From: a virus
DNA length: 64,000 nucleotides
IMG/VR virus record: IMGVR_UViG_3300034105_003151
Coordinates: 62,001-126,000 of that record
Strand: one strand, 5' to 3'
This document shows positions 45,369-62,758 of the stretch, in pieces. Within the stretch, counting starts at the first letter, position 1, and each line of letters begins with the position of its first letter. The position numbers were made by a program, and so were the translations under genes. A model generated the notes under the pieces. The model did not search any database, was not told the DNA's origin, and saw only the letters and a list, made by a program, of their open reading frames with translations.

Positions 45369-45443
45369 TCCACCCCGCCCGATTCGTCATAAGTCTTTAC
45401 GCAGTAAGGGTTTAGGTCGAGTGTTGACGCAAGTGGTGTGCCG
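45369..45443 (+). repeat. intergenic element 1 (single arm, reversed core order)
   Basis: GC-rich core CACCCCGCCCG precedes one 29-bp arm at 45388-45416. A TGGCAC-type site (CGGCACA-N4-TTGCG) lies on the minus strand at 45428-45443. No second 29-bp arm is found. The 304-base gap 45278-45581 holds the tandem boxes, this element and the promoter at 45514. Confidence 0.7.
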
Positions 45444-45513
45444 TGTGTGGATGAGGAAAAAAAGATTGTGGTTTGGTATGGAAAATTATTTTGAGATTTT
45501 CTAGATTTTTCTC

Positions 45514-45541
45514 TTGACGCTGTCGATAAAAATGGTATAAT
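45514..45541 (+). promoter_or_regulatory. promoter, heptamer in spacer
   Basis: TTGACG, 16-bp spacer containing GTCGATA, TATAAT. Drives the gene at 45582. Confidence 0.8.
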
Positions 45542-45581
45542 AGAAGCACAAGAGAAAACGAAGGATAGCGGAGAGAAGATC

Positions 45582-45797
45582 ATGAAGAACTACTTTGGCA
45601 AGGCGATTGCCCCTAACGCTGACGTTCAGCGACACAACGAACAGATCGCTCACCTGCGTGAACAACTTGCTAATGCAGAAACTAACAATGATGGGAGTCG
45701 TTGTGCCAAGATGGAAATCGAAGCCTATCAAAACTTCCTTCGTATCGCTCTGGAAAGCAAGGCCAACGTTGCCTCTACCATGTTCAAGAGGAAGTGA
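45582..45797 (+). CDS. hypothetical 71-residue helical protein
   Basis: Mostly helical and charged (HNEQIAHLREQLANAETNND). It has its own promoter and a purine-rich leader with GGAGAG eight bases before the ATG. A CCTTAC/GTAAGG hairpin follows the stop. No known family. Confidence 0.7.
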   Translation: MKNYFGKAIAPNADVQRHNEQIAHLREQLANAETNNDGSRCAKMEIEAYQNFLRIALESKANVASTMFKRK

Positions 45798-45801
45798 GAA
45801 A

Positions 45802-45819
45802 CCTTACGATTTTGTAAGG
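45802..45819 (+). promoter_or_regulatory. CCTTAC/GTAAGG hairpin
   Basis: 6-bp stem with 6-base loop just after the stop codon and 11 bases before the next -35 box. No T run follows, so it may be a 3'-end stabiliser, weak terminator or operator. Confidence 0.6.
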
Positions 45820-45830
45820 AAACTTTCTCA

Positions 45831-45859
45831 TTGACAATCCCTTTCCTAGACGATAAAAT
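45831..45859 (+). promoter_or_regulatory. promoter, heptamer merged with -10
   Basis: TTGACA, 17-bp spacer, TAAAAT; GACGATA runs into the -10 box. Confidence 0.8.
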
Positions 45860-45890
45860 ACAAGCACAAGAGAACACAAAGGAAAAAGAA

Positions 45891-46055
45891 ATGACTACAC
45901 TCTATCGGGTTGAATTGCATTCGGAAGGCTCTACGGTCTATCTTCTCACGAATAAGGGTTGGGCTGATATCGTCCATTTCAAGGAAAATGCCGAATATCG
46001 TGCCAACGCTTGGGTGAAGAATCAAGAGCGACTTGACCGAATGGACAATGGCTGA
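45891..46055 (+). CDS. hypothetical 54-residue protein
   Basis: Start at ATG 45891, behind AAGGAAAAAGAA. The product (MTTLYRVELHSEGSTVYLLT...) looks like two strands and a helix. Its C-terminus (ENAEYRANAWVKNQERLDRM) resembles the end of the 46-residue protein at 47035, suggesting a paralogous pair. Confidence 0.7.
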   Translation: MTTLYRVELHSEGSTVYLLTNKGWADIVHFKENAEYRANAWVKNQERLDRMDNG

Positions 46056-46056
46056 A

Positions 46057-46074
46057 CCTTACGGAATTGTAAGG
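46057..46074 (+). promoter_or_regulatory. CCTTAC/GTAAGG hairpin
   Basis: 6-bp stem directly after the stop codon, 11 bases before the next -35 box. Same geometry as the hairpin at 45802. Confidence 0.6.
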
Positions 46075-46085
46075 AAAGAAAGCTG

Positions 46086-46114
46086 TTGACATCCCCACAC
46101 AAAGACGATAAGAT
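46086..46114 (+). promoter_or_regulatory. promoter, heptamer merged with -10
   Basis: TTGACA, 17-bp spacer, TAAGAT with GACGATA. Confidence 0.8.
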
Positions 46115-46138
46115 ACTAGGACACAAAGGAAAAAGACA

Positions 46139-46312
46139 ATGAAGACTTTCTATATGTATGAGGCTGTTGGCAACGAGTACCGATATTGGGGTACGTTGTT
46201 TGCCGACAACTGGGTTGATGCTAGGGCTACAGCGGTTAGCCTTTGGGGTATCTCCTTTGGCAACATTGTTGCTGCTAGTACTCGCCTTCCCTTCTCTATG
46301 GTTACGGAGTGA
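46139..46312 (+). CDS. hypothetical 57-residue protein
   Basis: Start at ATG 46139 behind AAAGGAAAAAGACA. The product (MKTFYMYEAVGNEYRYWGTL...) looks like a small strand-strand-helix protein. Its end (GGAG at 46306) provides the ribosome-binding site for the next gene. Confidence 0.65.
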   Translation: MKTFYMYEAVGNEYRYWGTLFADNWVDARATAVSLWGISFGNIVAASTRLPFSMVTE

Positions 46313-46316
46313 ACAG

Positions 46317-46505
46317 GTGAATAGGTTTGATGGTTACGATACGATAGAGTTGGGTAAGAGGCTTGTGCAGTTCCAGGCTGCTCTGGAGAAGTGTACGCCT
46401 GAACAACCTAACGCTCGTACATATATCAGAGAGATGATTCGTGCTATCGCCCGTGAACTACTGTATAGGTATCGTCAAGAGACTGAGCTACTGTACAGTA
46501 AGTGA
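46317..46505 (+). CDS. 62-residue helical protein, paralogue of 48425-48607
   Basis: GTG start at 46317, seven bases after GGAG, is supported by homology: YDTIELGKRLVQFQAALEKC and ARELLYRYRQET align with YDTHELGLRMVQFQESLAKC and ARELLYRYRRET of the gene at 48425. Function unknown. Confidence 0.7.
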   Translation: MNRFDGYDTIELGKRLVQFQAALEKCTPEQPNARTYIREMIRAIARELLYRYRQETELLYSK

Positions 46506-46539
46506 TCATATGTACACTCATAAGCACCTAAGACCTTGA

Positions 46540-46621
46540 CGTAAAGCCTTACTGCATAAGGACTTGCGACAAGGCGGGCGGGCCGCATTTGACGTAAACC
46601 CTTGTGGCGTATAGACTTACG
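46540..46621 (+). repeat. intergenic element 2 (two arms)
   Basis: Left arm 46540-46568, 24-bp core with GGCGGGCGGGCCG, right arm 46593-46621. Both arms are 29-bp imperfect palindromes. Confidence 0.9.
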
Positions 46622-46657
46622 ACTGTACTATCTAAATTACGCTACTAGAGCCCTGCT

Positions 46658-46673
46658 TGGCACGGTATTTGCA
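46658..46673 (+). promoter_or_regulatory. sigma-54-type site TGGCACG-N4-TTGCA
   Basis: Perfect match to the -24/-12 consensus with correct spacing, 50 bases upstream of a sigma70-like promoter. Activity unknown. Confidence 0.55.
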
Positions 46674-46709
46674 CATCGAAAATATTTTGGATTTTCTTGG
46701 ATTTTTCTC

Positions 46710-46738
46710 TTGCAAGAGGTCGATAGAGTATGTATAAT
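46710..46738 (+). promoter_or_regulatory. promoter, heptamer in spacer
   Basis: TTGCAA, 17-bp spacer with GTCGATA, TATAAT. Confidence 0.75.
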
Positions 46739-46775
46739 GCACTCACAAGAGAAACGAAGGAAAAAGGAAAAGAAA

Positions 46776-46952
46776 ATGCGAGACATCAAAGTTGGCGAGC
46801 GGGTGGTTTTGGTGGAATCCGATTGGCTGTATGATGACGGTCAAGAGCCGCGTGGTGTGGTCGTTCGAGATTTGGGTCAAGGTGGATTTGTGATCCTGTG
46901 GGATGATGGTGAAGAGGGATCGGTTTCGGAAGAACAACTGGCTCACGAATAA
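46776..46952 (+). CDS. 58-residue SH3/KOW-like protein
   Basis: MRDIKVGERVVLVESDW followed by GVVVRDLGQGGFVILWDDG matches a small beta-barrel (KOW/SH3-like), similar in layout to the gene at 48904. It is acidic at the C-terminus. Such barrels often bind RNA or proteins. Start ATG 46776 follows AAGGAAAAGAAA. Confidence 0.65.
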   Translation: MRDIKVGERVVLVESDWLYDDGQEPRGVVVRDLGQGGFVILWDDGEEGSVSEEQLAHE

Positions 46953-46968
46953 AAAAGAAAAAAGGCTA

Positions 46969-46997
46969 TTGACAGCGGTGAAAAAAGTCGATAAAAT
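46969..46997 (+). promoter_or_regulatory. promoter, heptamer merged with -10
   Basis: TTGACA, 17-bp spacer, TAAAAT with GTCGATA. Confidence 0.8.
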
Positions 46998-47034
46998 ACT
47001 AGAACAAGAGAACGAAGAACAAAGGAAAAAGAAA

Positions 47035-47175
47035 ATGTACGCTGTCAAGAATGTCGATTGCAAGTGGGTTGTGGTGGCTGGCAAGGTTGAGTTGGCCTCT
47101 TTCGCCACGGAGAATGAGGCTAACCGCTATGCCGATTATATGGATCGGATGGATCGTCGGGACAACGGTCGATAA
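47035..47175 (+). CDS. hypothetical 46-residue protein
   Basis: Two strands and a helix (MYAVKNVDCKWVVVAGKVEL; ATENEANRYADYMDRMDRRD). It resembles the protein at 45891 at the C-terminus. ATG 47035 follows AAAGGAAAAAGAAA. Confidence 0.65.
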   Translation: MYAVKNVDCKWVVVAGKVELASFATENEANRYADYMDRMDRRDNGR

Positions 47176-47188
47176 TTCAAAAAAGCTG

Positions 47189-47217
47189 TTGACAGATTCG
47201 GATTCGGACGATAAAAT
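47189..47217 (+). promoter_or_regulatory. promoter, heptamer merged with -10
   Basis: TTGACA, 17-bp spacer, TAAAAT with GACGATA. Confidence 0.8.
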
Positions 47218-47252
47218 CCTAGCAGATCGATAACCCCAAAAGGATTCTGAAA

Positions 47253-47435
47253 ATGGACAACTTCACGGGCGAGATGTTTGCCGATTTTGATGTCTATCAA
47301 GCCAGAATGGAGAATGAAGCCATGCCTTATGAGGATTGCGAAACTTATGACCCCATTATGGGGGGTGATGAGGATTGGACCGAAACGGACGATGATTTTG
47401 CCGCCGATTATTACGGCGAAGAGGAGTTTGCCTAA
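47253..47435 (+). CDS. strongly acidic 60-residue protein
   Basis: About one third of residues are Asp or Glu (DEDWTETDDDFAADYYGEEE). Very acidic small phage proteins can mimic DNA and block host restriction or nucleoid proteins. No family match is recognised, so the mimic idea is inference. Confidence 0.65.
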   Translation: MDNFTGEMFADFDVYQARMENEAMPYEDCETYDPIMGGDEDWTETDDDFAADYYGEEEFA

Positions 47436-47448
47436 AAGGGCAACTTGA

Positions 47449-47500
47449 CCTAAACCTTTGCCTCGTAAAGACTTACGGCGAGGCGGGCGGGCCGATTTTT
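47449..47500 (+). repeat. intergenic element 3 (left arm and core only)
   Basis: Left arm 47449-47477, then GGCGGGCGGGCCG and a T7 run. The right arm is missing; the TGGCAC dyad follows at once. Confidence 0.8.
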
Positions 47501-47537
47501 TTGGCACGGTATTTGCATTTAGCAAACGGTGTGCCAA
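47501..47537. promoter_or_regulatory. TTGGCAC...GTGCCAA dyad with sigma-54-type sites on both strands
   Basis: Plus strand TGGCACG-N4-TTGCA (47502-47517) and minus strand TGGCACA-N4-TTGCT (47537-47522). The dyad also has TTTGC/GCAAA inner arms around ATTTA. The two sites face each other. Confidence 0.6.
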
Positions 47538-47602
47538 TTACCTCGCCAATTTTCTTTTCTGTTTGGCATGGAAAATAATTTCAAATTTCTTGGATTTTTT
47601 TC

Positions 47603-47630
47603 TTGAAACTCAAGTTTGTCTCTGTATAAT
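47603..47630 (+). promoter_or_regulatory. promoter, heptamer after -10
   Basis: TTGAAA, 16-bp spacer, TATAAT then GTCGATA. Confidence 0.75.
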
Positions 47631-47672
47631 GTCGATAGATAAGAGAGAAACGAAACCCAAGAGGATACGATC

Positions 47673-47900
47673 ATGCGAGCCATCGAAAACGCTAACGTCA
47701 AGGAAAACACCTATTACGAAATCAGCATCGCCTCCCCTATCTGTGGTACTTATACCATACGGGGAATGTTTTTCTTCGTTGACGTTGATGCTAACAAAGT
47801 GGGAATTATTCCCGCATGGAACACCAATATCCTGCTCAACTACGATGCTGATTGGATTGTGAGTGTTGACGGTGTTGACGGAGACACGAAGGGGGATTGA
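47673..47900 (+). CDS. hypothetical 75-residue beta-rich protein
   Basis: Strand-rich (TYYEISIASPICGTYTIRGM; DADWIVSVDG). Small barrel likely. Starts behind AAGAGGATACG. A CCTTAC hairpin follows 36 bases after the stop. Confidence 0.65.
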   Translation: MRAIENANVKENTYYEISIASPICGTYTIRGMFFFVDVDANKVGIIPAWNTNILLNYDADWIVSVDGVDGDTKGD

Positions 47901-47935
47901 TATTCCCCACAAGGGGAGGAAGAAACCTTACGGAA

Positions 47936-47953
47936 ATGTAAGGAAACTTTCTT
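47936..47953 (+). promoter_or_regulatory. CCTTAC/GTAAGG hairpin
   Basis: 6-bp stem, ending one base before the next -35 box at 47955. No T run. Confidence 0.6.
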
Positions 47954-47954
47954 G

Positions 47955-47982
47955 TTGACACTCAATTCCTACCCTGTATAAT
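47955..47982 (+). promoter_or_regulatory. promoter, heptamer after -10
   Basis: TTGACA, 16-bp spacer, TATAAT then GTCGATA. Confidence 0.85.
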
Positions 47983-48024
47983 GTCGATAGATTCACAAGA
48001 GACACAAGCCCAAAGGAAAAGACC

Positions 48025-48192
48025 ATGCACCCCACAATCCCCAAGCACTTCGAAGCTCGATTTGTTCTCCAGTATGATTCTTCTTTTAATGTCTACAACG
48101 TTTATGAGAAAATGAATGGTGGGGGAGTGCAGATTATCGCAGGTTTTCCTACTTTTTCGCAAGCTGTTCGATGCATGGAACAGAATGAATGA
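48025..48192 (+). CDS. hypothetical 55-residue protein, AGFPT family
   Basis: ATG 48025 behind AAAGGAAAAGACC. The segment QIIAGFPTFSQAVRCMEQ matches HIVAGFPTLEEANIWCHQ of the gene at 63217, indicating paralogues with a strand-strand-helix layout. Function unknown. Confidence 0.65.
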   Translation: MHPTIPKHFEARFVLQYDSSFNVYNVYEKMNGGGVQIIAGFPTFSQAVRCMEQNE

Positions 48193-48199
48193 AGGCGAA

Positions 48200-48217
48200 C
48201 CTTACGAAAATGTAAGG
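48200..48217 (+). promoter_or_regulatory. CCTTAC/GTAAGG hairpin
   Basis: 6-bp stem between a stop codon (48192) and the next -35 box (48229). Confidence 0.6.
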
Positions 48218-48228
48218 AAAGTTTTCTG

Positions 48229-48257
48229 TTGACAACCCTTCCCCTAGACGATAGAAT
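48229..48257 (+). promoter_or_regulatory. promoter, heptamer merged with -10; leaderless mRNA expected
   Basis: TTGACA, 17-bp spacer, TAGAAT at 48252-48257, ATG at 48264. The transcript should begin at or next to the start codon. Confidence 0.75.
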
Positions 48258-48263
48258 ACAAAC

Positions 48264-48413
48264 ATGACACAACAAATGCAAAACACGCTTAGTCGCCTCA
48301 CCGCTACCCACGGCTATACTCCTACCTTTGTGCAGGATTTGGGCTATGGTATTCATGTGTACAGTATCGGTGGATACTACTACAAGCTTCGCGGCGATGG
48401 TACGATTCTGTGA
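48264..48413 (+). CDS. 49-residue protein from a probable leaderless mRNA
   Basis: The -10 box ends six bases before the ATG, so there is no room for a ribosome-binding site. An internal ATG at codon 5 has none either. The product (MTQQMQNTLSRLTATHGYTP...) has no known family. Its stop overlaps the leader of the next gene. Confidence 0.6.
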   Translation: MTQQMQNTLSRLTATHGYTPTFVQDLGYGIHVYSIGGYYYKLRGDGTIL

Positions 48414-48424
48414 AAGGGAAAACT

Positions 48425-48607
48425 ATGTTTGAAAGCTACGATACTCACGAGCTTGGTTTGCGGATGGTGCAATTCCAAGAGTCTTTGGCTAAGTGTAAGC
48501 CTGAACAGGTGTTCGTCTGTTCATTCCTTCGCCAGATGATTTCCTCTATGGCTAGGGAACTGTTGTACAGGTACAGGCGAGAGACTAAACTTCTGTGCAG
48601 TAGGTGA
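48425..48607 (+). CDS. 60-residue helical protein, paralogue of 46317-46505
   Basis: ATG 48425 behind AAAGGGAAAACT. YDTHELGLRMVQFQESLAKC and MARELLYRYRRET align with the earlier gene. Function unknown. Confidence 0.7.
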   Translation: MFESYDTHELGLRMVQFQESLAKCKPEQVFVCSFLRQMISSMARELLYRYRRETKLLCSR

Positions 48608-48621
48608 ACAAAAGTACTCGA

Positions 48622-48703
48622 CGTAAAGCCTTACCACATAAGGACTTACGACTAGGCGGGCGGGCCGCGTTTTTCGTAACTCCTTATCTGGCAACGACTT
48701 AGG
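48622..48703 (+). repeat. intergenic element 4 (two arms)
   Basis: Left arm 48622-48650, 24-bp core, right arm 48675-48703. A minus-strand CGGCACG-N4-TTGCG site follows just downstream. Confidence 0.9.
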
Positions 48704-48736
48704 TCAAATGCTAACGCAAACCGCGTGCCGTTCGTT

Positions 48737-48772
48737 TTGGCACGGAAAATGCATTTAGCAAAGAGTGTGCCA
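48737..48772. promoter_or_regulatory. TTGGCAC...GTGCCA dyad
   Basis: Plus: TGGCACG-N4-ATGCA (48738-48753). Minus: TGGCACA-N4-TTGCT (48772-48757). The plus -12 box has one mismatch. Confidence 0.55.
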
Positions 48773-48800
48773 TTCGTGATGAAAATTGGAAAAAGTTGTG

Positions 48801-48816
48801 TCAAAATCTCTTGACA
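48801..48816 (+). repeat. TCAAAATCTCTTGACA upstream box
   Basis: Shared with 50141-50160 and 51301-51320, about 20-40 bases upstream of three promoters. Confidence 0.6.
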
Positions 48817-48836
48817 AAAAAATCCAAAAAAATCTC

Positions 48837-48864
48837 TTGCATTCTCAAGTTGGCGTGGTATAAT
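48837..48864 (+). promoter_or_regulatory. promoter, heptamer after -10
   Basis: TTGCAT, 16-bp spacer, TATAAT then GTCGATA. Confidence 0.75.
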
Positions 48865-48903
48865 GTCGATATAAGAGTAAGAGACAAAGAAAGAGAGAAA
48901 AGA

Positions 48904-49056
48904 ATGTTTGAGATTGGTGACCGGGTGATTGTGGATTGCGACGTTGTGGGTCGGATTATCGGATGGAGATATGACGAAGGTAATGTGTGGGCCGTACAGA
49001 TCACCAATGGTGATATCATTGAATGTGCCGACGATTATCTCTCTCCAGCTAAGTGA
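48904..49056 (+). CDS. 50-residue SH3/KOW-like protein
   Basis: MFEIGDRVIVDCDVVGRIIG and VWAVQITNGDIIECADDYLS form a predicted small beta-barrel, close in plan to the gene at 46776. Starts behind AAGAGAGAAAAGA. Confidence 0.65.
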   Translation: MFEIGDRVIVDCDVVGRIIGWRYDEGNVWAVQITNGDIIECADDYLSPAK

Positions 49057-49073
49057 TTCCAATCCTTACGATA

Positions 49074-49091
49074 TTGTAAGGAAACTTTTCC
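49074..49091 (+). promoter_or_regulatory. CCTTAC/GTAAGG hairpin
   Basis: 6-bp stem 18 bases after a stop; it ends two bases before the next -35 box at 49094. Confidence 0.6.
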
Positions 49092-49093
49092 TG

Positions 49094-49122
49094 TTGACAA
49101 ATCGCACAAAAGACGATAAAAT
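49094..49122 (+). promoter_or_regulatory. promoter, heptamer merged with -10
   Basis: TTGACA, 17-bp spacer, TAAAAT with GACGATA. Confidence 0.8.
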
Positions 49123-49148
49123 AGAAACACAAGAAAGAAAAAACAAAA

Positions 49149-49475
49149 ATGAGCAAGTTGAACAGTATCACGCTTCGTAAAGATAACAGTATGATTGAGC
49201 ATTACATTCGTGAGGATGGTGTTCAAGATATCTATCGTTTCAAGAATGGTTATGGTGCTAGCGTTGTATGTTCTTGCGGTAGTTATGGTGGTAAACAGGG
49301 ATTGAAAGAGTTGGCAGTTCTTGATAAGGATGGACATATCTGTTATGATACTCCGATTACTGGTGATGTTCTTGGATGGCTGACGGATGAGCAAGTAGAA
49401 GAGTATCTGAGTCAGATTGCGAACCTTCCTACTGAAGTGAAAAAGCTCTCTACCGAAGTTAAGAGACTTACATAG
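49149..49475 (+). CDS. conserved phage protein, 108 residues
   Basis: NGYGASVVCSCGSYGGKQGL, then ELAVLDKDGHICYDTPITGD and VLGWLTDEQVEEYLSQI resemble a small conserved phage family with the phrase 'YGASV...ELAVL..D....YDTPIT.DV.G.L'. Function unknown. The C-terminus is a short coiled coil (TEVKKLSTEVKRLT). Confidence 0.7.
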   Translation: MSKLNSITLRKDNSMIEHYIREDGVQDIYRFKNGYGASVVCSCGSYGGKQGLKELAVLDKDGHICYDTPITGDVLGWLTDEQVEEYLSQIANLPTEVKKLSTEVKRLT

Positions 49476-49527
49476 GTTAGATTAGGACGTTTAGTAAACT
49501 ACAGTTTTTACACAGAAAGAAGAAAAG

Positions 49528-49719
49528 ATGTACAGTTTCATTTGGCTGTGTCGGATGATGCAAGAGCGAACGGAAGTCGTTCTTTTGGGTGGTGATAATA
49601 AGACCTACTATGGTACTATTAATAGTATCGTCATCGATGATGGTAGTGGTAGGAGCTGGGTTGTAACGCTTGCGTTGGTTGGTGGTGGATATAAAACTAT
49701 TCTTGTAAAGGCTGAGTAA
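49528..49719 (+). CDS. 63-residue beta-barrel-like protein
   Basis: Strand-rich (TEVVLLGGDNKTYYGTINSI; RSWVVTLALVGGGYKTILVK). It could be a small KOW/SH3-like barrel. It shares the last base of its stop with the next ATG. An internal ATG 27 bases in is possible. Confidence 0.6.
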   Translation: MYSFIWLCRMMQERTEVVLLGGDNKTYYGTINSIVIDDGSGRSWVVTLALVGGGYKTILVKAE

Positions 49720-49982
49720 TGAACGGTTACGAACTGCTTGAACTTTTTGGCCGACAACTGCGTGAGGCTATCGAGGTTCCTAATTCTTGGCTTCCCGAAG
49801 AGTTTAGGGACGAGCGTACCGATAGTGTTACACTTGCCGATCTGGAACATAAGTGTGACATTCGTGATAGTAACAACATGACCGACTACGAATACGAAAA
49901 GGCCGAAAAGGCCAAGCGTATACTGTTGTACACTGAACAGGTGAACAGTGGTGCAGAAGAATTGACCTATCTACAAAAGTGA
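49719..49982 (+). CDS. hypothetical 87-residue helical protein
   Basis: Helical, charged product (MNGYELLELFGRQLREAIEV; YEYEKAEKAKRILLYTEQV). Coupled to the preceding gene by TAATG. No family recognised. Confidence 0.65.
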   Translation: MNGYELLELFGRQLREAIEVPNSWLPEEFRDERTDSVTLADLEHKCDIRDSNNMTDYEYEKAEKAKRILLYTEQVNSGAEELTYLQK

Positions 49983-49983
49983 T

Positions 49984-50065
49984 CGTAAGTGGTTGTTGCA
50001 TAAGGACTTACGACGAGCGGGGCGGGCCGTTTTTAACGTAAACCCTTATCACCAAAGGACTTGCG
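49984..50065 (+). repeat. intergenic element 5 (two arms)
   Basis: Left arm 49984-50012, 24-bp core, right arm 50037-50065. Confidence 0.9.
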
Positions 50066-50100
50066 ACAAGTGTTTTAGCCAAACTACCCAGATGCCGCAC

Positions 50101-50116
50101 AGCAAGTCTTGTGCCA
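50101..50116 (-). promoter_or_regulatory. sigma-54-type site TGGCACA-N4-TTGCT, minus strand
   Basis: Correct -24/-12 spacing on the minus strand; no plus-strand partner. Confidence 0.5.
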
Positions 50117-50140
50117 AACAGGCCCAAAATAAGGAAAAGT

Positions 50141-50160
50141 TTTGTCAAAATCTCTTGACA
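50141..50160 (+). repeat. upstream box TTTGTCAAAATCTCTTGACA
   Basis: Identical 20 bases occur at 51301-51320; a shorter match at 48801. Confidence 0.75.
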
Positions 50161-50180
50161 ATATTTTTGGGATTTTTCTC

Positions 50181-50208
50181 TTGCGTTCTCAAGTGGATAT
50201 GGTATAAT
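50181..50208 (+). promoter_or_regulatory. promoter, heptamer after -10
   Basis: TTGCGT, 16-bp spacer, TATAAT then GTCGATA. Confidence 0.75.
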
Positions 50209-50247
50209 GTCGATATGAGAGTTAGAGACAACAAGAGAGAAAACCAA

Positions 50248-50430: not shown

Positions 50431-50432
50431 GG
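50415..50432 (+). promoter_or_regulatory. CCTTAC/GTAAGG hairpin overlapping a stop codon
   Basis: 6-bp stem; the downstream arm contains the stop of the preceding gene. Next -35 box starts at 50444. Confidence 0.6.
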
Positions 50433-51118: not shown

Positions 51119-51200
51119 CCTAAACCCTTGTCAGATAAGGACTTAGGGCAAAAACGGCGGGCCGCGTTCGCCGTAAACCCTTACGCGGCAACGACTTACG
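51119..51200 (+). repeat. intergenic element 6 (two arms)
   Basis: Left arm 51119-51147, 24-bp core, right arm 51172-51200. The 307-base gap to 51409 also holds the TGGCAT dyad, the upstream box and the promoter. Confidence 0.9.
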
Positions 51201-52412: not shown

Positions 52413-52494
52413 CGCAAACCCTTGCTGCGTAAGGACTTACGGCGAGGGCGGCGGGCCGCGTTTGACGCAAACCCTTTGGAGGCAACAACTTACG
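52413..52494 (+). repeat. intergenic element 7 (two arms)
   Basis: Left arm 52413-52441, 24-bp core, right arm 52466-52494. A half copy of the 3' hairpin (CCTTACGG) follows. Confidence 0.9.
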
Positions 52495-52517
52495 TCAACC
52501 TTACGGAAAATTCAGAA

Positions 52518-52545
52518 TTGACATTTGAGAAAGTTGTGGTATAAT
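52518..52545 (+). promoter_or_regulatory. promoter, heptamer after -10
   Basis: TTGACA, 16-bp spacer, TATAAT then GTCGATA. No ORF starts before the next promoter. Confidence 0.8.
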
Positions 52546-54059: not shown

Positions 54060-54108
54060 CGTAAACCCGTGTGGCGTAAGCACTTACGTCAAATCGGGCG
54101 GGCCGCGA
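54060..54108 (+). repeat. intergenic element 8 (left arm and core)
   Basis: Left arm 54060-54088 overlaps the region just past the stop codon; core CGGGCGGGCCGCG follows. No right arm. Confidence 0.8.
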
Positions 54109-55472: not shown

Positions 55473-55554
55473 CGTAAACCCTTTGTGCGTAAGCACTTAG
55501 GGCACGGCGGGCGGGCCGTTTTTGACGTAAGTCTTTATGCAGTAAGGGGTTGAG
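55473..55554 (+). repeat. intergenic element 9 (two arms)
   Basis: Left arm 55473-55501, 24-bp core, right arm 55526-55554. Confidence 0.9.
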
Positions 55555-57179: not shown

Positions 57180-57225
57180 CGGCCCGCCGGTTTTGACGTA
57201 ACTCCTTATGCAGCAACAACTTACC
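57180..57225 (+). repeat. intergenic element 10 (core remnant and right arm)
   Basis: GGCCCGCCGG core remnant (57181-57190) then right arm 57197-57225. No left arm. Confidence 0.75.
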
Positions 57226-57908: not shown

Positions 57909-57923
57909 AGCAGAAAGAAAACA

Positions 57924-58061
57924 ATGCTTATCCAAACCAAAAATCCCGATCTGTATAGGCTATGGATCGAATACTATGATGCTTTTCGTCCCGACATGAG
58001 AGGATATGAAAAGAGAACCTACGCCTTTTTTAATAGCGAAAAGGGCATTTATCCGGGTTGA
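57924..58061 (+). CDS. hypothetical 45-residue protein
   Basis: MLIQTKNPDLYRLWIEYYDA then RGYEKRTYAFFNSEKG. Aromatic and charged; no family. ATG 57924 behind AGAAAGAAAACA. Stop lies in the next promoter. Confidence 0.55.
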   Translation: MLIQTKNPDLYRLWIEYYDAFRPDMRGYEKRTYAFFNSEKGIYPG

Positions 58062-58085
58062 CTCTCACGCAAAGCGTGGTAGACT
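58058..58085 (+). promoter_or_regulatory. promoter overlapping a stop codon, ACGC-AAA-GCGT spacer
   Basis: TTGACT with the upstream TGA, 16-bp spacer, TAGACT. Confidence 0.7.
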
Positions 58086-58104
58086 TGTAAAAAAGGAGCC
58101 AAAG

Positions 58105-58323
58105 ATGAAGATGAAGATTAAGCGTAGAGGAGAAGAGGAGCAGAGAGTTTCATTTGAGTCTCTTGAACCGGGACAGCTTTTTGAATACGCTAATAGGCTA
58201 ATGATCAAAATGGGTCCATATGAAGATGATGATGCTTTTGATATTGATAACAATATCACATTAATCATTTATCGACTCACTCAAGTACTGCCCCTTAACG
58301 CCACACTAACCATAGAGGAATAA
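58105..58323 (+). CDS. VxFRDI family small protein (copy 3)
   Basis: 72 residues. VSFESLEPGQLFEYANRLMI and VLPLNATLTIEE fit the family. Start behind AAAAAGGAGCCAAAG; a second ATG two codons later is possible. Confidence 0.7.
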   Translation: MKMKIKRRGEEEQRVSFESLEPGQLFEYANRLMIKMGPYEDDDAFDIDNNITLIIYRLTQVLPLNATLTIEE

Positions 58324-58324
58324 G

Positions 58325-58552
58325 ATGAAGATTCAAGAGAATGAGAAACCCAAGATGGTTCCTTTTCGTGATATTGAACGTGGAGGTGTTTTTCGATATG
58401 CAAATGACATTATCATGAAGACTGATATCTATACGGTTGCAATAGGAACTCTTAAAGCGATCCGTTTGACAGATGGAGCGGGATTCGTATGTGTCTTTGA
58501 TGATGAAAAAACTCTTGTTGAGCCTCTTGACACTACTCTGGTGATTAACTAG
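58325..58552 (+). CDS. VxFRDI family small protein (copy 4)
   Basis: 75 residues. VPFRDIERGGVFRYANDIIM and LVEPLDTTLVIN fit the family. ATG just after the previous stop. Confidence 0.7.
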   Translation: MKIQENEKPKMVPFRDIERGGVFRYANDIIMKTDIYTVAIGTLKAIRLTDGAGFVCVFDDEKTLVEPLDTTLVIN

Positions 58553-58563
58553 GAGAATTGAAC

Positions 58564-58782
58564 ATGAAGATTACCAAAAAAAAGCGGGATTGGGTTAATT
58601 TCAAAGATATCCCGGTAGGTCAAACCTTCCGTGATGTGGATGAAGAGCCTTGTCTCAGAATAGAAACGACTGATTCAGGACATAACGCCATTTCCCTCTC
58701 AATTAATCGTGCTTATGAGTTTAGGGAAAATAATCTGGTGACTCCTATTAATGCAGAGTTGATTGTTGATGATCATCAATAA
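58564..58782 (+). CDS. VxFRDI family small protein (copy 5)
   Basis: 72 residues. VNFKDIPVGQTFRDVDEEPC and LVTPINAELIVDD fit the family. ATG 58564 lies after AGGAGAATTGAAC. Confidence 0.7.
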   Translation: MKITKKKRDWVNFKDIPVGQTFRDVDEEPCLRIETTDSGHNAISLSINRAYEFRENNLVTPINAELIVDDHQ

Positions 58783-58797
58783 GTACCGGGAGTAAGT

Positions 58798-58953
58798 ATG
58801 ACTTACAAGTGGCTTGACGAAGCGGCAAAAGAAATCCTTGATAAGTTCACTATTGATCCAAATAGCAAGGTGGAGAATGGACTGACCGCGAAAGAAAGAA
58901 TGATTAGTTATATCCTAGCAGCTATTGACAATATCGAAAGGGAGTTAGAATGA
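58798..58953 (+). CDS. hypothetical 51-residue helical protein
   Basis: MTYKWLDEAAKEILDKFTID then ISYILAAIDNIERELE. ATG 58798 after GGGAGTAAGT. ATGA overlap with the next gene. Confidence 0.6.
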   Translation: MTYKWLDEAAKEILDKFTIDPNSKVENGLTAKERMISYILAAIDNIERELE

Positions 58954-59210
58954 CTATCGGTCAACTAATCGAAAAAATTGGTAATCTTCAACAGTACAAA
59001 CCTTGTATCAATCATGATTCAGGGTTTCCTTGGGCGGGTATGGAAGAATCTACTAAGGATGGATTTATTTTCGCGGCTGATCTCAAAAACATTCTAGAGG
59101 AGTTTCTTACAGGCTTGACTCTGGAAGCGATTGAAACCGTAATCAACTCTCCTAATAAGAATAAGCCTAAGATTGAACCTAAACTCTTGCCCGGTAAGGA
59201 CTTAGGGTGA
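58950..59210 (+). CDS. hypothetical 86-residue protein
   Basis: Helical with a Pro/Lys tail (SPNKNKPKIEPKLLPGKDLG). Its last codons and stop are encoded by the left arm of element 11, so the element overlaps coding sequence. Confidence 0.65.
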   Translation: MTIGQLIEKIGNLQQYKPCINHDSGFPWAGMEESTKDGFIFAADLKNILEEFLTGLTLEAIETVINSPNKNKPKIEPKLLPGKDLG

Positions 59211-59259
59211 ACCGGGCCAGCCCGATGTGTCGTAACTCCTTACGCAGCAACGACTTGCA
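59178..59259 (+). repeat. intergenic element 11 (two arms, overlaps a gene end)
   Basis: Left arm 59178-59206 (inside the preceding gene), 24-bp core, right arm 59231-59259. The core (CCGGGCCAGCCCGATG) is the most divergent. Confidence 0.85.
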
Positions 59260-59262
59260 GCA

Positions 59263-59323
59263 AGTTGTCAGAACTGACACTTATCCCCCCAAAACAGCCA
59301 TAAATTGCCAGAAGTGACACTCA
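59263..59323. promoter_or_regulatory. paired operator-like sites
   Basis: TGTCAG-AA-CTGACA is a perfect dyad at about 59266-59279; a related TGCCAG-AA-GTGACA follows near 59307. Both lie just upstream of the promoter at 59335. A repressor-type binding pair is likely. Confidence 0.5.
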
Positions 59324-59334
59324 AGATTTCGCTC

Positions 59335-59362
59335 TTGACAAGACGATATTGGGGTGTAGAAT
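59335..59362 (+). promoter_or_regulatory. promoter, heptamer in spacer
   Basis: TTGACA, 16-bp spacer with GACGATA, TAGAAT. Confidence 0.8.
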
Positions 59363-59382
59363 GATAGAACAAGGAGAGGATT

Positions 59383-59775
59383 ATGTATCGTGTTCGTTTT
59401 CATCTTCAATCTGGCAAAAACTACAAATGCTGGCAGATTTGTCAGATGAATGGTAGTCGGCGTGTCAAAGAAATCTACTACGACCCATCAAAGGTTCAGC
59501 TAGAACTAGTTGAGTGCAAGTTGGTCAACAAGGTTAAGATTGCTCGCAGGGTTCATGCCGAAGGTGTCAGGGATGTGGCAGGATGGGTTGAGTGCTTGGA
59601 AGTGAAAATCTCTGAAAATCCAGTTGACGGTCTTGAGAGATTATTTTACAACCCAATTCTCGATCCAAATTGGCGTAGAGATGGAGACAATGGGGAGTTT
59701 GTGTGGGACGATAGCGAATACAAAACACTGGTTACACAGGGCAAACGGGTTTATATTCTTGAAGAAAGGGTTTGA
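59383..59775 (+). CDS. conserved phage protein, 130 residues
   Basis: The start YRVRFHLQSGKNYKCWQI, then EIYYDPSKVQLELVECKLVN and VAGWVECLEVKISE fit a widespread phage family of unknown function. Starts behind AAGGAGAGGATT. Confidence 0.7.
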   Translation: MYRVRFHLQSGKNYKCWQICQMNGSRRVKEIYYDPSKVQLELVECKLVNKVKIARRVHAEGVRDVAGWVECLEVKISENPVDGLERLFYNPILDPNWRRDGDNGEFVWDDSEYKTLVTQGKRVYILEERV

Positions 59776-59776
59776 A

Positions 59777-60169
59777 ATGATTAGTATTGAAATGACCGTT
59801 GCAGAGATTCTCGATCTTTATCGCAATTGCGATGTGAATTACAAGCTTAAGGAGCGTCTTGTTGCTGCTCTGGAGAAAGCTGTTGCTGTTAAGGGTATGG
59901 GTAATAACTATACATTCACTTTTTACTCACTGCGAAATCCAGAAAACTTCATTAACTGCATTAAGATCATCCGTCTTCACACAAAGATGCATCTTAGAGA
60001 CGCTAAAGAGTTTATGGATGTGGTTCGTGGGACGTTGTCTTATGATAATGTCTATCGTGGAGGCACTTCAAAGAATCTCACTGGTTATAGTGAAGATATC
60101 TGTTCTAAAATTGTGAGCGACCTTCGTGATATTGGCGAATGGGATATTAATTATACTCCATCTACTTGA
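59777..60169 (+). CDS. 130-residue protein with L7/L12 C-terminal-like helix
   Basis: Starts at ATG 59777, overlapping the previous stop region. CIKIIRLHTKMHLRDAKEFM resembles the C-terminal domain of ribosomal protein L7/L12 (IK..R..TgLgLkEAK..V). That domain recruits translation factors, so mimicry is conceivable. Sequence similarity is limited to one motif. Confidence 0.55.
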   Translation: MISIEMTVAEILDLYRNCDVNYKLKERLVAALEKAVAVKGMGNNYTFTFYSLRNPENFINCIKIIRLHTKMHLRDAKEFMDVVRGTLSYDNVYRGGTSKNLTGYSEDICSKIVSDLRDIGEWDINYTPST

Positions 60170-60177
60170 TCGCTCTT

Positions 60178-60259
60178 CCTAAGTCCTTTCCCCGCAAGGG
60201 GTTAGGGCCGGGGCGGCGGGCCGCGTTTGACGTAACTCCTTATCCCACAACCTCTTACG
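60178..60259 (+). repeat. intergenic element 12 (two arms)
   Basis: Left arm 60178-60206, 24-bp core, right arm 60231-60259. Confidence 0.9.
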
Positions 60260-60271
60260 TCAACTACTCAC

Positions 60272-60287
60272 AGCAAATCCCATGCCA
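60272..60287 (-). promoter_or_regulatory. sigma-54-type site TGGCATG-N4-TTGCT, minus strand
   Basis: One base from the -24 consensus, correct spacing. Confidence 0.45.
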
Positions 60288-60309
60288 AAGATTTTTTCAA
60301 GAAGAGGTG

Positions 60310-60337
60310 TTGACATGGACGATATAAGAGGTAGAAT
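60310..60337 (+). promoter_or_regulatory. promoter, heptamer in spacer
   Basis: TTGACA, 16-bp spacer with GACGATA, TAGAAT. No convincing ORF before the next promoter. Confidence 0.75.
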
Positions 60338-60394
60338 ACAACAGTACGAGCAAGGAAACAGGGACGAGCAAAAAACAAAATCGACCAACTGCCC

Positions 60395-60422
60395 TTGACA
60401 AGTACACTTTGCGTTGTATAAT
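60395..60422 (+). promoter_or_regulatory. promoter, no heptamer
   Basis: TTGACA, 16-bp spacer, perfect TATAAT, 85 bases after the preceding promoter. Drives the gene at 60460. Confidence 0.8.
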
Positions 60423-60459
60423 TTTGGAAATGGTTCTAACACTTTTGAGGAATATAAAA

Positions 60460-60762
60460 ATGGATAAGATCAACGTTTGCGAGTTCAAGGTTAGTGTTTC
60501 GGGTGTTTCTGAGTCTTTCGACTATGCCGATGTGGTTGATACGATCAAGGCCGCTCTTGTCGAGGCACTGCCGGATAGCTACGGTGTTTATGCCCGTGCA
60601 GAGCAGATTCGTGAGATGACGCACCAGGGTTGGCTGAATTGCCGTGCCCGTGTGTACAACGTGACTGCTGTGGAAGCCGGTGACGGTAAGAGTGCCAGCA
60701 AGGTTATCAAGCTGACAGGAAAGAAGGTCAAGGAAGAGGAGACTGCTACGGCTACCGCCTGA
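60460..60762 (+). CDS. hypothetical 100-residue protein
   Basis: Alternating strands and helices (VCEFKVSVSGVSESFDYADV; IKAALVEALPDSYG), with a Thr/Glu/Ala tail. ATG 60460 after TTGAGGAATATAAA. No family recognised. Confidence 0.65.
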   Translation: MDKINVCEFKVSVSGVSESFDYADVVDTIKAALVEALPDSYGVYARAEQIREMTHQGWLNCRARVYNVTAVEAGDGKSASKVIKLTGKKVKEEETATATA

Positions 60763-60763
60763 C

Positions 60764-60791
60764 TTGACAAACTCGACCCAGCGAGTATAAA
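60764..60791 (+). promoter_or_regulatory. promoter, no heptamer
   Basis: TTGACA one base past a stop codon, 16-bp spacer, TATAAA. Confidence 0.75.
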
Positions 60792-60796
60792 CAGCT

Positions 60797-60930
60797 TTTA
60801 GGCTGGGTGCGGTGGAACAGTAACCATCCTGTTCCGCGTAAGGATTATCGGCGTGGGATTCGCCGGTCTAGTAGAGTCTAACCAACTGATAAGACAGTGG
60901 TACTCGTTGAAGCGGCTTGCTACTAGTATT
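60797..60930 (+). ncRNA. candidate structured RNA
   Basis: No ORF. Hairpins: CAGC/GCTG, GGAACAG/CTGTTCC and CGGCG-TGGGATT-CGCCG; CTAGTAG (60868-60874) pairs with CTACTAG (60920-60926). Together they give a compact, multi-stem RNA of about 130 bases with its own promoter. Confidence 0.5.
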
Positions 60931-60935
60931 ATAAT
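60907..60935 (+). promoter_or_regulatory. promoter of the small zinc protein
   Basis: TTGAAG, 17-bp spacer, TATAAT. A strong GC hairpin (AGCCCTCACGG/CCGTGGGGGCT, GACG loop) lies in its 5' leader at about 60966-60991. Confidence 0.7.
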
Positions 60936-61027
60936 GTGGTAAAGTAGTCGCACCACAAAACCGTTAGCCCTCACGGGACGCCGTGGGGGCTTGCGGCATT
61001 AGTAGACCTAATAAACTGGAGAAAAAA

Positions 61028-61186
61028 ATGGCAAAGTCAAAGAGTTATGATCCTAGTACAAAGTTGACAAAGTGTACTTGTAAGCACGCTTTTCAGGATG
61101 CTGAGTATGGCGAAGATATTCGTCTCATGAATAAGAAAAAGGCCGGTGGTTTTTGCTGCACTGTTTGTGGTAAAGACAAGGTATAA
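61028..61186 (+). CDS. 52-residue zinc-finger protein
   Basis: Starts MAKSKSYDPSTKLTKCTCKH and ends GGFCCTVCGKDKV: four Cys plus His can bind zinc. A widespread short phage protein of unknown function. Ribosome-binding site GGAG. The leader hairpin could control its translation. Confidence 0.7.
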   Translation: MAKSKSYDPSTKLTKCTCKHAFQDAEYGEDIRLMNKKKAGGFCCTVCGKDKV

Positions 61187-61187
61187 T

Positions 61188-61320
61188 CAATAATAATATG
61201 ACGATTAAAGTCGAACGTAATCGTTGAAAGTCGGAACAAAAAAGCTAAATAAAGACTAGTGAGTTAGCCTCCTCCTAGTCTGGTACACCTAATCTACCCA
61301 ATTAGCAAACAAAATCCGAC
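61188..61320 (+). ncRNA. candidate small RNA with CCTCC loop
   Basis: ACGATTA/TAATCGT hairpin (61201-61224) and AGACTAG/CTAGTCT hairpin (61253-61281); the second loop contains CCTCCTC, able to pair with ribosome-binding sites. A TATAAT box at 61182 overlaps the preceding stop, but its -35 is weak. Confidence 0.3.
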
Positions 61321-61326
61321 ATAAGT

Positions 61327-61408
61327 CACAAGTCCTTATACAGCAAGTACTTAGGGCTGGGCCGGCGGGCCGCGTTCGCCGTAAGTCCTTATCTACCAAC
61401 ACTTTACG
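61327..61408 (+). repeat. intergenic element 13 (two arms)
   Basis: Left arm 61327-61355, 24-bp core, right arm 61380-61408. The 338-base gap 61187-61524 holds the small-RNA candidate, this element and a promoter. Confidence 0.9.
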
Positions 61409-61432
61409 AGTTGTTTCGCCTTCTGCAACAAC

Positions 61433-61448
61433 TGCAAATATCATGCCA
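61433..61448 (-). promoter_or_regulatory. sigma-54-type site TGGCATG-N4-TTGCA, minus strand
   Basis: One mismatch in the -24 box, correct spacing. Confidence 0.45.
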
Positions 61449-61471
61449 AAGATTTTTCAAAGATTTACCCC

Positions 61472-61499
61472 TTGACTTGCCGATAAGATATTGTAGAAT
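61472..61499 (+). promoter_or_regulatory. promoter, heptamer variant in spacer
   Basis: TTGACT, 16-bp spacer with CCGATA, TAGAAT. Confidence 0.75.
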
Positions 61500-61524
61500 G
61501 ACAGGACACAAGGGAGAATGAAAA

Positions 61525-62244
61525 ATGAAGATTGCTGATGGTAACGATAAGCTCGGCAAGAATTGTATTGTGGTGTCGCGTCCGGTTGGCGATACTTGTC
61601 CAATCGAAGGATCAGACCGTCCGTGTGCCTTTTTTAATAACGGATGCTATGCGGAAGCTACTGAAAATCAGTATAAGAATGCCCGCACTGCTGGTTTTGC
61701 CAATGTGATTACAAAAAAGAATCTTATTCGCTCTATGATTCTTGACGCTATTAAGCGTAAGAAAAGCATTCGTTGGCATGAGCGTGGCGATTTCTTTATT
61801 GACAATAAACTCGATACCGATTATGTTGACAATATAACCTGGGCTTGTGAGAGCGTGTTGGCCGATGGTATTAAATTGCCTAAGATGTGGTTTTATACCC
61901 ATATCTATGACCCTGCTCTGGTCGCGTTAGGTAAGTTTATGAGTGCTTATGCTAGTGTTCATAATGATGATGATATGAATGCTGCTAAGGCTGTTGGTTT
62001 TACTAAGTTTGCGTGGTGCGATAGTGATAAGAAAATTGCCCCTAAGCGTCCTAAGAGTAAGGCTAAGGCTGATGCTTGGCGTAAAGAGTTGCCAAAGTTT
62101 GTTATCCTGAACAACGAGCGTTTTGTTACTTGCCCTGAGATTCGCAAGGGACGAACGTTTGTTACTTGTAGTGGTAGTAAGGATAGTCAAGCGTGTGATA
62201 TGTGTATCAATGGTCGTGCTAGTGTCTTTTTCCCCTGTCATTGA
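61525..62244 (+). CDS. Cys-rich conserved phage protein (DUF7227-like)
   Basis: 239 residues. CPIEGSDRPCAFFNNGCYAE near residue 30 and CSGSKDSQACDMCINGRASV at the C-terminus hold Cys sets seen in a phage family I associate with DUF7227. A metal or iron-sulfur site is likely; function unknown. Ribosome-binding site AAGGGAG. Confidence 0.65.
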   Translation: MKIADGNDKLGKNCIVVSRPVGDTCPIEGSDRPCAFFNNGCYAEATENQYKNARTAGFANVITKKNLIRSMILDAIKRKKSIRWHERGDFFIDNKLDTDYVDNITWACESVLADGIKLPKMWFYTHIYDPALVALGKFMSAYASVHNDDDMNAAKAVGFTKFAWCDSDKKIAPKRPKSKAKADAWRKELPKFVILNNERFVTCPEIRKGRTFVTCSGSKDSQACDMCINGRASVFFPCH

Positions 62245-62253
62245 GGATTTACA

Positions 62254-62433
62254 ATGAATAAGTGGATTAAAATTGATGATGAAAAGATTCTGCACTTGTG
62301 GCAGTGTGCGGATTGTAATGAAACTCGCTATGTTTATCCTTGGTTCTATTCAGAAATGGGCGAACCCTGTTGTGAAGGATGTGATGGAGATATGGAATAC
62401 ATTCATACAGAGATGGAGGTTGACAATGGCTAA
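62254..62433 (+). CDS. 59-residue zinc-ribbon protein
   Basis: Two Cys pairs, CADC and CCEGC, in a compact ribbon; acidic C-terminus. ATG 62254 after TTGAGGATTTACA. It overlaps the next gene by eight bases. Confidence 0.65.
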   Translation: MNKWIKIDDEKILHLWQCADCNETRYVYPWFYSEMGEPCCEGCDGDMEYIHTEMEVDNG

Positions 62434-62671
62434 GTACTATGTTAACTGTGGTTCGGTCAAGGTAATATATGATATGGGACCAAAAGGAAAGCATATGGAC
62501 GCGGCAGTTAGGGCTTTTCTAGATACTAATAAGGATGATAAACTGGACAACTATATGATTGTAAGCGAGCAAGGATTCCGCGATCAATTTGATATGATGC
62601 CCGTACATGATATGGCATACAGTATTACAAAAGTACAAAGAGTGGCAGAGAAAAGACAACGAAAGAAATAA
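62426..62671 (+). CDS. hypothetical 81-residue protein
   Basis: MAKYYVNCGSVKVIYDMGPK, MDAAVRAFLDTN and a basic tail (VQRVAEKRQRKK). Start follows GGAGGTTGACA. No family recognised. Confidence 0.65.
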   Translation: MAKYYVNCGSVKVIYDMGPKGKHMDAAVRAFLDTNKDDKLDNYMIVSEQGFRDQFDMMPVHDMAYSITKVQRVAEKRQRKK

Positions 62672-62676
62672 CTCGC

Positions 62677-62758
62677 CGTAAACCCTTGCCACTAAACGAC
62701 TTAGGGCGAGGGCGGCGGGCCGGGCTCCTCCTAAACCCTTATGCAGCAAGTACTTAGG
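62677..62758 (+). repeat. intergenic element 14 (two arms)
   Basis: Left arm 62677-62705, 24-bp core, right arm 62730-62758. A weak promoter with GTCGATA and TATGGC follows near 62790-62810. Confidence 0.9.

What the first reader, a model, noticed from the sequence alone, without database searches (positions are those of the whole stretch)
45388..62758. Fourteen intergenic elements with a fixed 29-24-29 architecture
Ten elements (2, 4, 5, 6, 7, 9, 11, 12, 13, 14) have two 29-bp imperfect palindromes separated by exactly 24 bp; elements 1, 3, 8 and 10 keep one arm. Arm consensus is CGTAAACCCTT, 7 variable bases, AAGGACTTACG. The core carries GGCGGGCCG in nine of ten. The arm-to-arm period is 53 bp, about five helical turns, so both arms face the same side of DNA. 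Outer pairs vary as G-C or C-G in a compensating way, showing that dyad symmetry is selected. They recur every 1-2 kb at transcription-unit boundaries, only in the plus-strand accessory arm. I know of no described element of this form.
Basis: seen in the sequence. Interest (0 to 1): 0.92.

Follow-up and report, generated by a model that had tools for sequence, protein, structure and literature searches.

The report
Paired palindromes upstream of phage promoters
A large group of uncultured phages carries dozens of 82-bp sites, each made of two near-palindromes at a fixed distance, just upstream of the promoters of their small accessory genes; they look like docking sites for an unidentified DNA-binding protein that works with RNA polymerase, and no published element of this exact form was found.

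Summary
The window holds ten complete 29-24-29 elements and four with one arm; two more complete ones lie to the right in the same 151-kb phage record. Relatives from environmental metagenomes keep the design. Across 298 arms the inner spacer is always 7 bp, and 129 of 130 close pairs are exactly 53 bp apart; a second set gave 462 more pairs. The 'compensating pairs' claim fails: base-pair covariation is absent, A-C mismatches are as common as G-T, and copies share no RNA fold. The new finding is where the elements sit. In relatives they lie immediately upstream of sigma-70-type promoters, on one side only, with the end-to-(-35) distance peaking at 18, 28-29, 39 and about 50 bp, which is a 10.5-bp helical phase. 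An A/T-rich UP-like stretch lies between, and the core's central 10 bp are 94% G+C. One relative has unrelated palindrome pairs (CTGCCAAAATGGCAG, period 29) before eight orthologous gene families. Best reading: a DNA-level, bipartite upstream regulatory site, more likely activating than repressing, for an unidentified protein. Nearest published relatives in kind are SPBRE of SPbeta, ESAS of cluster K mycobacteriophages and L5 stoperators. Binding and effect are not shown.

The parts
45388..45416 (-). Element 1: one arm kept
   Evidence: downstream promoter TTGACG-16-TATAAT at 45514-45541
46540..46621 (+). Element 2: complete 29-24-29
   Evidence: core GGCGGGCCG at 46577; -35 TTGCAA 88 bp beyond its end
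47449..47494 (+). Element 3: left arm and core, right arm lost
48622..48703 (+). Element 4: complete
49984..50065 (+). Element 5: complete
51119..51200 (+). Element 6: complete
52413..52494 (+). Element 7: complete; TTGACA-16-TATAAT begins at 52518
54060..54105 (+). Element 8: left arm and core, right arm lost; promoter at 54162
55473..55554 (+). Element 9: complete; TTGACA at 55580
57180..57225 (+). Element 10: inverted core (CGGCCCGCC) and right arm; TTGACA at 57255, 29 bp beyond its end
59178..59259 (+). Element 11: complete, atypical core; TTGACA at 59335
60178..60259 (+). Element 12: complete; TTGACA at 60310
61327..61408 (+). Element 13: complete; TTGACT at 61472
62677..62758 (+). Element 14: complete; TTGACA at 62821
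52495..52545 (+). Example of the attached promoter (element 7): short A/T-rich stretch, TTGACA, 16 bp, TATAAT, then GTCGATA
45050..45277 (+). First gene at the array: 75-aa small HTH-like protein with a conserved K-rich RGRP tail, present across the clade; candidate general regulator, not the type-specific one
   Evidence: homologues; weak match to phrog_323, D5-like transcriptional regulator, E 0.029; no Pfam match

Best explanation
Each element is a bipartite upstream regulatory site in double-stranded DNA. A sequence-specific DNA-binding protein (phage- or host-encoded, not identified) binds the four half-sites CSTAA-NN-CNTT of the two dyads, bends or wraps the G+C-rich 24-bp core, and, standing just upstream of an A/T-rich UP-like stretch, contacts host sigma-70 RNA polymerase at the promoter on its right. 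The effect is most likely activation of accessory (early) transcription units in the manner of a class I activator. Shown: anatomy, exact geometry, polarity, helical phasing to the -35 box, conservation across phages, replacement by an unrelated dyad pair at orthologous genes. Inferred: that a protein binds, that it touches polymerase, and that the sign is positive.
For: Exact geometry: inner spacer 7 bp in 284 of 284 scored arms, none at 3-6 or 8-11; arm period 53 in 129 of 130 close pairs and in 462 pairs of a second set. Invariant TAA/TTA and TT/AA at all four half-sites, with different preferences at positions 6-9, so the element is polar. Promoter on one side in 280 elements and on both sides in none; distance to -35 peaks at 18, 28-29, 39 and about 50, Rayleigh R = 0.65 at 10.5 bp, n = 255; R = 0.50, naive p 3e-9, n = 79 after strict removal of similar sequences, and R = 0.45 without the main peak. 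A promoter is found in 280 oriented flanks but only 40 control anchors. A/T-rich UP-like stretch between element and -35. Class I CRP sites show the same ~10.5-bp dependence (PMC6301791). Promoters next to elements have a weaker -10 (TAGAAT 49%, TATAAT 15%) than other promoters of the arrays (19% and 46%), as expected if they are assisted. Phage-specific dialects at positions 22-24 and 59-61, z up to 14.7, and an unrelated dyad pair at the same place before eight orthologous gene families, fit tracking of a trans-acting factor.
Against: No DNA-binding protein tracks the element: genes shared by element-bearing phages and missing from the two relatives without it are a ferritin-like protein, HNH nucleases and short unknowns. 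Many attached promoters are close to consensus and might need no activator. In the window's own phage the distances are longer and looser (23-140 bp). The weaker -10 could reflect promoter descent rather than activation. No expression or binding data exist.
Confidence: 0.55

Rival explanations
1. Repressor operator grid: a phage repressor binds all elements and silences the accessory units, by looping or wrapping at the promoter (SPBRE/MrpR-like) or as roadblocks (stoperator-like). Different dyad pairs in different phages would be different immunity types.
For: Repeated intergenic sites in one arm of the genome, with type replaced as a set, resemble SPBRE bound by MrpR (PMC10516654) and stoperators, whose consensus varies among cluster A phages (PMC5712189). 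The attached promoters are strong by sequence and could need repression.
Against: The elements lie upstream of the -35 box rather than over the promoter or downstream of it. Promoters beside them have a weaker -10. No recognisable tyrosine recombinase; no integrase or repressor gene was recognised among the proteins examined, and nothing suggests a temperate phage.
Confidence: 0.25
2. RNA element: a double hairpin in the 3' end of the upstream transcript (terminator, RNase site or put-like signal).
For: The arms can fold as hairpins and some copies fold better than shuffles (z down to -4.0); the elements lie at transcription-unit boundaries.
Against: No covariation. Wobble pairs are no more frequent than A-C mismatches at the arm ends (about 55 against 78, counted from the columns). 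Copies do not share one fold. No terminator-like site on the + strand at any element. No Rfam family. Phasing to a DNA promoter is unexpected for an RNA element.
Confidence: 0.07
3. Recombination sites: each 11-7-11 arm is a tyrosine-recombinase core-type site and the units between elements are movable cassettes (integron-like).
For: 11-7-11 layout with inner CTT/AAG and a variable 7-bp centre resembles core-type sites; small gene units lie between the elements.
Against: No tyrosine recombinase found in the phage (control positive in 14 of 14 genomes). Order of orthologous units is conserved among phages. A recombination site has no reason to be phased to a promoter.
Confidence: 0.05
4. DNA-topology or nucleoid element (gyrase, HU-like or partition protein; BIME-like boundary between tandem units).
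For: Very G+C-rich core beside an A/T-rich stretch, fixed geometry, one per transcription unit.
Against: Polarity and phasing to the promoter on one side only. No REP-associated (Y1) transposase in the phage. The rapid change of sequence specificity is unusual for a conserved host topoisomerase.
Confidence: 0.08

Closest known systems
Extended start-associated sequences (ESAS) of cluster K mycobacteriophages (PMC3203893)
   Same: Pairs of imperfect inverted repeats before a subset of genes, only in the non-structural half of the genome; consensus differs between subclusters; hairpins little supported; function unknown
   Different: 17-bp repeats with a variable 4-13 bp spacer beside a 13-bp SAS at the start codon; here two 29-bp dyads with an invariant 24-bp core, upstream of the promoter, and no SAS
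SPBRE, bound by the MrpR master repressor of Bacillus phage SPbeta (PMC10516654)
   Same: Repeated intergenic element of a large phage, bound by a protein with tyrosine-recombinase fold; the window's terminase is a distant relative of SPbeta's YonF (24.7% identity)
   Different: Single 15-bp motif, not a bipartite 82-bp element; no recognisable recombinase-fold protein in this phage
Stoperators of cluster A mycobacteriophages such as L5 (PMC5712189)
   Same: About 24 short sites, mostly intergenic, in one orientation to transcription; consensus varies between phages
   Different: 13-bp asymmetric single sites whose occupation lowers expression downstream; here paired dyads phased to the next promoter; consensus not enriched
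Class I activator sites of bacteria (CRP at lac and its spaced derivatives; PMC6301791)
   Same: Dyad upstream of the alpha-CTD/UP region, activity with ~10.5-bp helical periodicity
   Different: One 22-bp dyad centred near -61.5; here two dyads, the nearer one centred near -70 to -90 by sequence, and the protein is unknown

Membership tests
ESAS/SAS of cluster K mycobacteriophages | 13-bp SAS (GGGATAGGAGCCC) next to the repeat pair | tested here: not met
   0 matches with up to 2 mismatches in the window
ESAS/SAS of cluster K mycobacteriophages | 17-bp inverted repeats with variable 4-13 bp spacer | tested here: not met
   29-bp arms, spacer fixed at 24 bp
SPBRE / MrpR | Repeated intergenic phage element | tested here: met
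SPBRE / MrpR | Cognate repressor with tyrosine-recombinase fold in the phage | tested here: inconclusive
   No PF00589 match, but MrpR-like proteins diverge in sequence and no fold search was made
Stoperators | 13-bp asymmetric site, consensus GGTGGMTGTCAAG | tested here: not met
   3 matches against 1.6 expected; the elements are dyads
Integron attC / tyrosine-recombinase core sites | Integrase gene and shuffled cassettes | tested here: not met
   No PF00589; order of units conserved
REP/BIME elements | REP-associated Y1 transposase in the same genome | tested here: not met
   No PF01797 match
Intrinsic terminators | G+C-rich hairpin followed at once by a U run, on the transcript strand | tested here: not met
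   None at the elements on the + strand; no covariation
Class I upstream activator site | Helix-phased position upstream of a sigma-70 promoter | tested here: met
   (relatives; looser in the window's own phage)
Class I upstream activator site | Bound activator that contacts alpha-CTD and raises transcription | not testable with these tools
   needs binding and reporter assays

The most novel reading that the evidence does not exclude
A new class of phage promoter architecture: a large, uncultured phage clade puts a bipartite, protein-wrapped enhancer-like site, phased to the polymerase, in front of nearly every accessory transcription unit, and whole genomes switch all their sites to a different dyad pair (53-bp type A, 29-bp type B, perhaps a GGCCCGGGCC type C) together with a change of an unidentified cognate factor, while the promoters and their genes stay the same.
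Probability: 0.35. Interest if true: 0.78.

Novelty: new variant of a known kind. Interest (0 to 1): 0.62.

Why it matters
The helical phasing gives a direct sequence-based clue to how these phages use host polymerase for dozens of small, mostly unknown genes. The same genes carry different dyad pairs in different phages, which makes co-evolution of a regulator with a whole set of sites testable. The rigid 11-7-11 / 24 / 11-7-11 layout can also be used to find such phages in metagenomes.

Tried and rejected
RNA hairpin reading: rejected on covariation, wobble counts, folding and terminator scans. Rfam: only tRNAs and a Pistol ribozyme in the region. Recombination or integron reading: no tyrosine recombinase, conserved unit order. 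REP/BIME: no Y1 transposase. Search for the trans-acting protein by comparing shared genes of element-bearing phages with two relatives lacking type A: no convincing candidate. A 110-aa HTH-like protein (record 44479-44811) was considered because it looked specific, but the relatives without type A have diverged versions at the same place, and its putative recognition helix varies among type A phages as well. The 75-aa HTH-like protein at the array start has a constant recognition helix in all types, so it is not the type-specific factor. Isolate relatives: none. The exact pattern in bacterial genomes gave six stretches on five short MAG contigs binned to unrelated phyla, several with multiple elements, probably phage contigs; no host could be read from them. 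Literature searches for a described element of this form found none.
Full report
What was checked. The window is bases 62001-126000 of a 151.3-kb uncultured virus record: a tailed phage with tape-measure protein, portal, terminase, split PolIII alpha, DnaB, RuvB and ligase, a tmRNA and at least 26 tRNAs. The finding was re-derived with a position weight matrix over the whole record. Two more complete pairs lie beyond the window (record 128638 and 130136). A 29-mer pattern scan has 17 hits in the window against 0 in every shuffle.

Are they conserved? The terminase found 367 relatives, of which 80 were kept. Many carry the same arms, again 53 bp apart. With a symmetric half-site model on 20 stretches of relatives plus the window's phage: 298 arms; inner spacer 7 in 284 of 284 and never 3-6 or 8-11; close pairs 53 bp apart in 129 of 130 cases. 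That set was chosen by a pattern that already fixes the geometry, so it serves for promoter distances rather than as new evidence for geometry.

DNA or RNA? Over 124 distinct elements, partner bases within arms do not covary beyond shuffles made within each phage; the only positive hint is z = 2.1 at positions 2/28, and inner positions 6-9 are slightly anti-paired. From the column counts, G-T pairs at arm positions 1/29 and 3/27 number about 55 and A-C mismatches about 78, so wobble is not favoured. Six copies fold in different ways, with z from -0.6 to -4.0. No terminator-like structure lies at the elements on the transcribed strand. The conserved feature is four half-sites CSTAA-NN-CNTT in double-stranded DNA with invariant TAA/TTA and TT/AA. 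The two arms have different preferences (for example A at position 6 but G at position 59), so the element has a direction.

Where do they sit? In relatives the element is followed by an A/T-rich stretch resembling an UP element and then TTGACA-16/17-TAGAAT or TATAAT with CCGATAAT in the spacer. In the first set the distance from element end to -35 clusters at 17-19 and 27-30 with a smaller group at 37-39. In the second set the peaks are 18, 28-29, 39 and about 50, with few cases between; a promoter is present on one side in 280 elements, on both sides in 0; R = 0.65 at 10.5 bp, n = 255. Near-identical sequences inflate such counts, so similar flanks were removed strictly: n = 79, R = 0.50, naive p 3e-9, and R = 0.45 without the main peak. 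The period is only loosely determined (10.5 to 11.5 all score well). Control anchors 250-600 bp upstream gave 40 promoters against 280. The window's own phage is less regular (23 to 140 bp), and there a further motif (TTGGCAC-N5-TTGC and its mirror image) often lies between element and promoter. Element 10 of the window is in phase, with -35 29 bp beyond its end.

Core. The central 10 bp of the 24-bp core are 94% G+C on average in genomes of about 36% G+C, without a fixed sequence; GGCGGGCCG is the local dialect of this phage. Such a G+C-rich centre flanked by A/T suggests indirect readout, such as bending or wrapping (inference).

Change of type. In a relative with 72% identical terminase and no type A arrays (contig of 159 kb), 14 pairs of CTGCCAAAATGGCAG-like palindromes, always 29 bp apart with a CGCGGCC-like core, lie 12 or 23-25 bp upstream of TTGACA in the compact cases. 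Eight families of orthologous downstream genes have the 53-bp type in some phages and this type in that one. A third relative has GGCCCGGGCC palindromes before promoters, one of them before a gene family that has the 53-bp type elsewhere. Within the 53-bp type, positions 22-24 and 59-61 show phage-specific dialects (z up to 14.7; the orientation of one pair of contigs there was uncertain). This is what a set of sites following a changing protein would look like (inference).

Mechanism. Shown: a polar, bipartite DNA element with exact geometry, helix-phased to a sigma-70-type promoter. Inferred: a protein binds both dyads and contacts polymerase. The sign is uncertain. Activation is favoured because attached promoters use the weaker TAGAAT in 49% and TATAAT in 15% of cases, against 19% and 46% for other promoters in the same arrays, and because class I activators show the same ~10.5-bp dependence (PMC6301791). 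Repression remains open: SPBRE bound by MrpR (PMC10516654) and stoperators (PMC5712189) are repeated intergenic repressor sites.

Known relatives. The nearest published form is ESAS of cluster K mycobacteriophages (PMC3203893): pairs of imperfect 17-bp inverted repeats with a variable spacer, a subcluster-specific consensus, and little support for hairpins. The SAS motif is absent here, the stoperator consensus is not enriched, and no PF00589 or PF01797 protein was found. The element therefore belongs to a known kind (phage-wide repeated regulatory sites) as a new, more rigid variant tied to promoters.

Limits. No trans-acting protein was found, no host is known, all promoters are inferred from sequence, and the phages are uncultured.

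Noticed in passing
window 60771-60843 (+): Pistol self-cleaving ribozyme (Rfam RF02679, 55.2 bits, E 8e-8) in the accessory arm, just after a 117-codon ORF.
   Followed up: no
promoters throughout window 45500-64000 and relatives: GTCGATA/CCGATA motif in or just after nearly every TTGACA-TATAAT promoter, shared by phages with different element types; probably a second regulator's site.
   Followed up: partly
window 45802, 46058, 47926, 48200, 49064, 50417: Small palindrome CCTTACG-N4-TGTAAGG directly before the -35 box of internal promoters; also in relatives.
   Followed up: partly
window 47500-47540, 48733-48770, 51260-51270; several relatives: TTGGCAC-N5-TTGC, often with its mirror image GCAAA-N-GTGCCAA, between element and promoter; resembles a sigma-54 -24/-12 box but is dyad-symmetric.
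   Followed up: no
L156 and L155 (G019): Analogous type B elements: CTGCCAAAATGGCAG pairs, period exactly 29 bp, G+C-rich core, upstream of TTGACA.
   Followed up: yes
L157 and L158 (G025): GGCCCGGGCC palindromes upstream of promoters in another relative; possible third type.
   Followed up: partly
L052 2220-4043 (G012): Repeated GCAAAATGC words (TGTAGCAAAATGC, several per array) downstream of some elements.
   Followed up: no
window 45050-45277 (+): 75-aa HTH-like protein with RGRP tail at the start of the array, conserved across the whole clade with a nearly constant RRQRRKL helix.
   Followed up: partly
window 57299-57397 (+): Unusually long tRNA-like match (99 nt, Rfam tRNA 41 bits) that ARAGORN does not call.
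   Followed up: no
G000 8785-9138: Phage-encoded tmRNA with tag GETQLALAA, besides at least 26 tRNAs.
   Followed up: no
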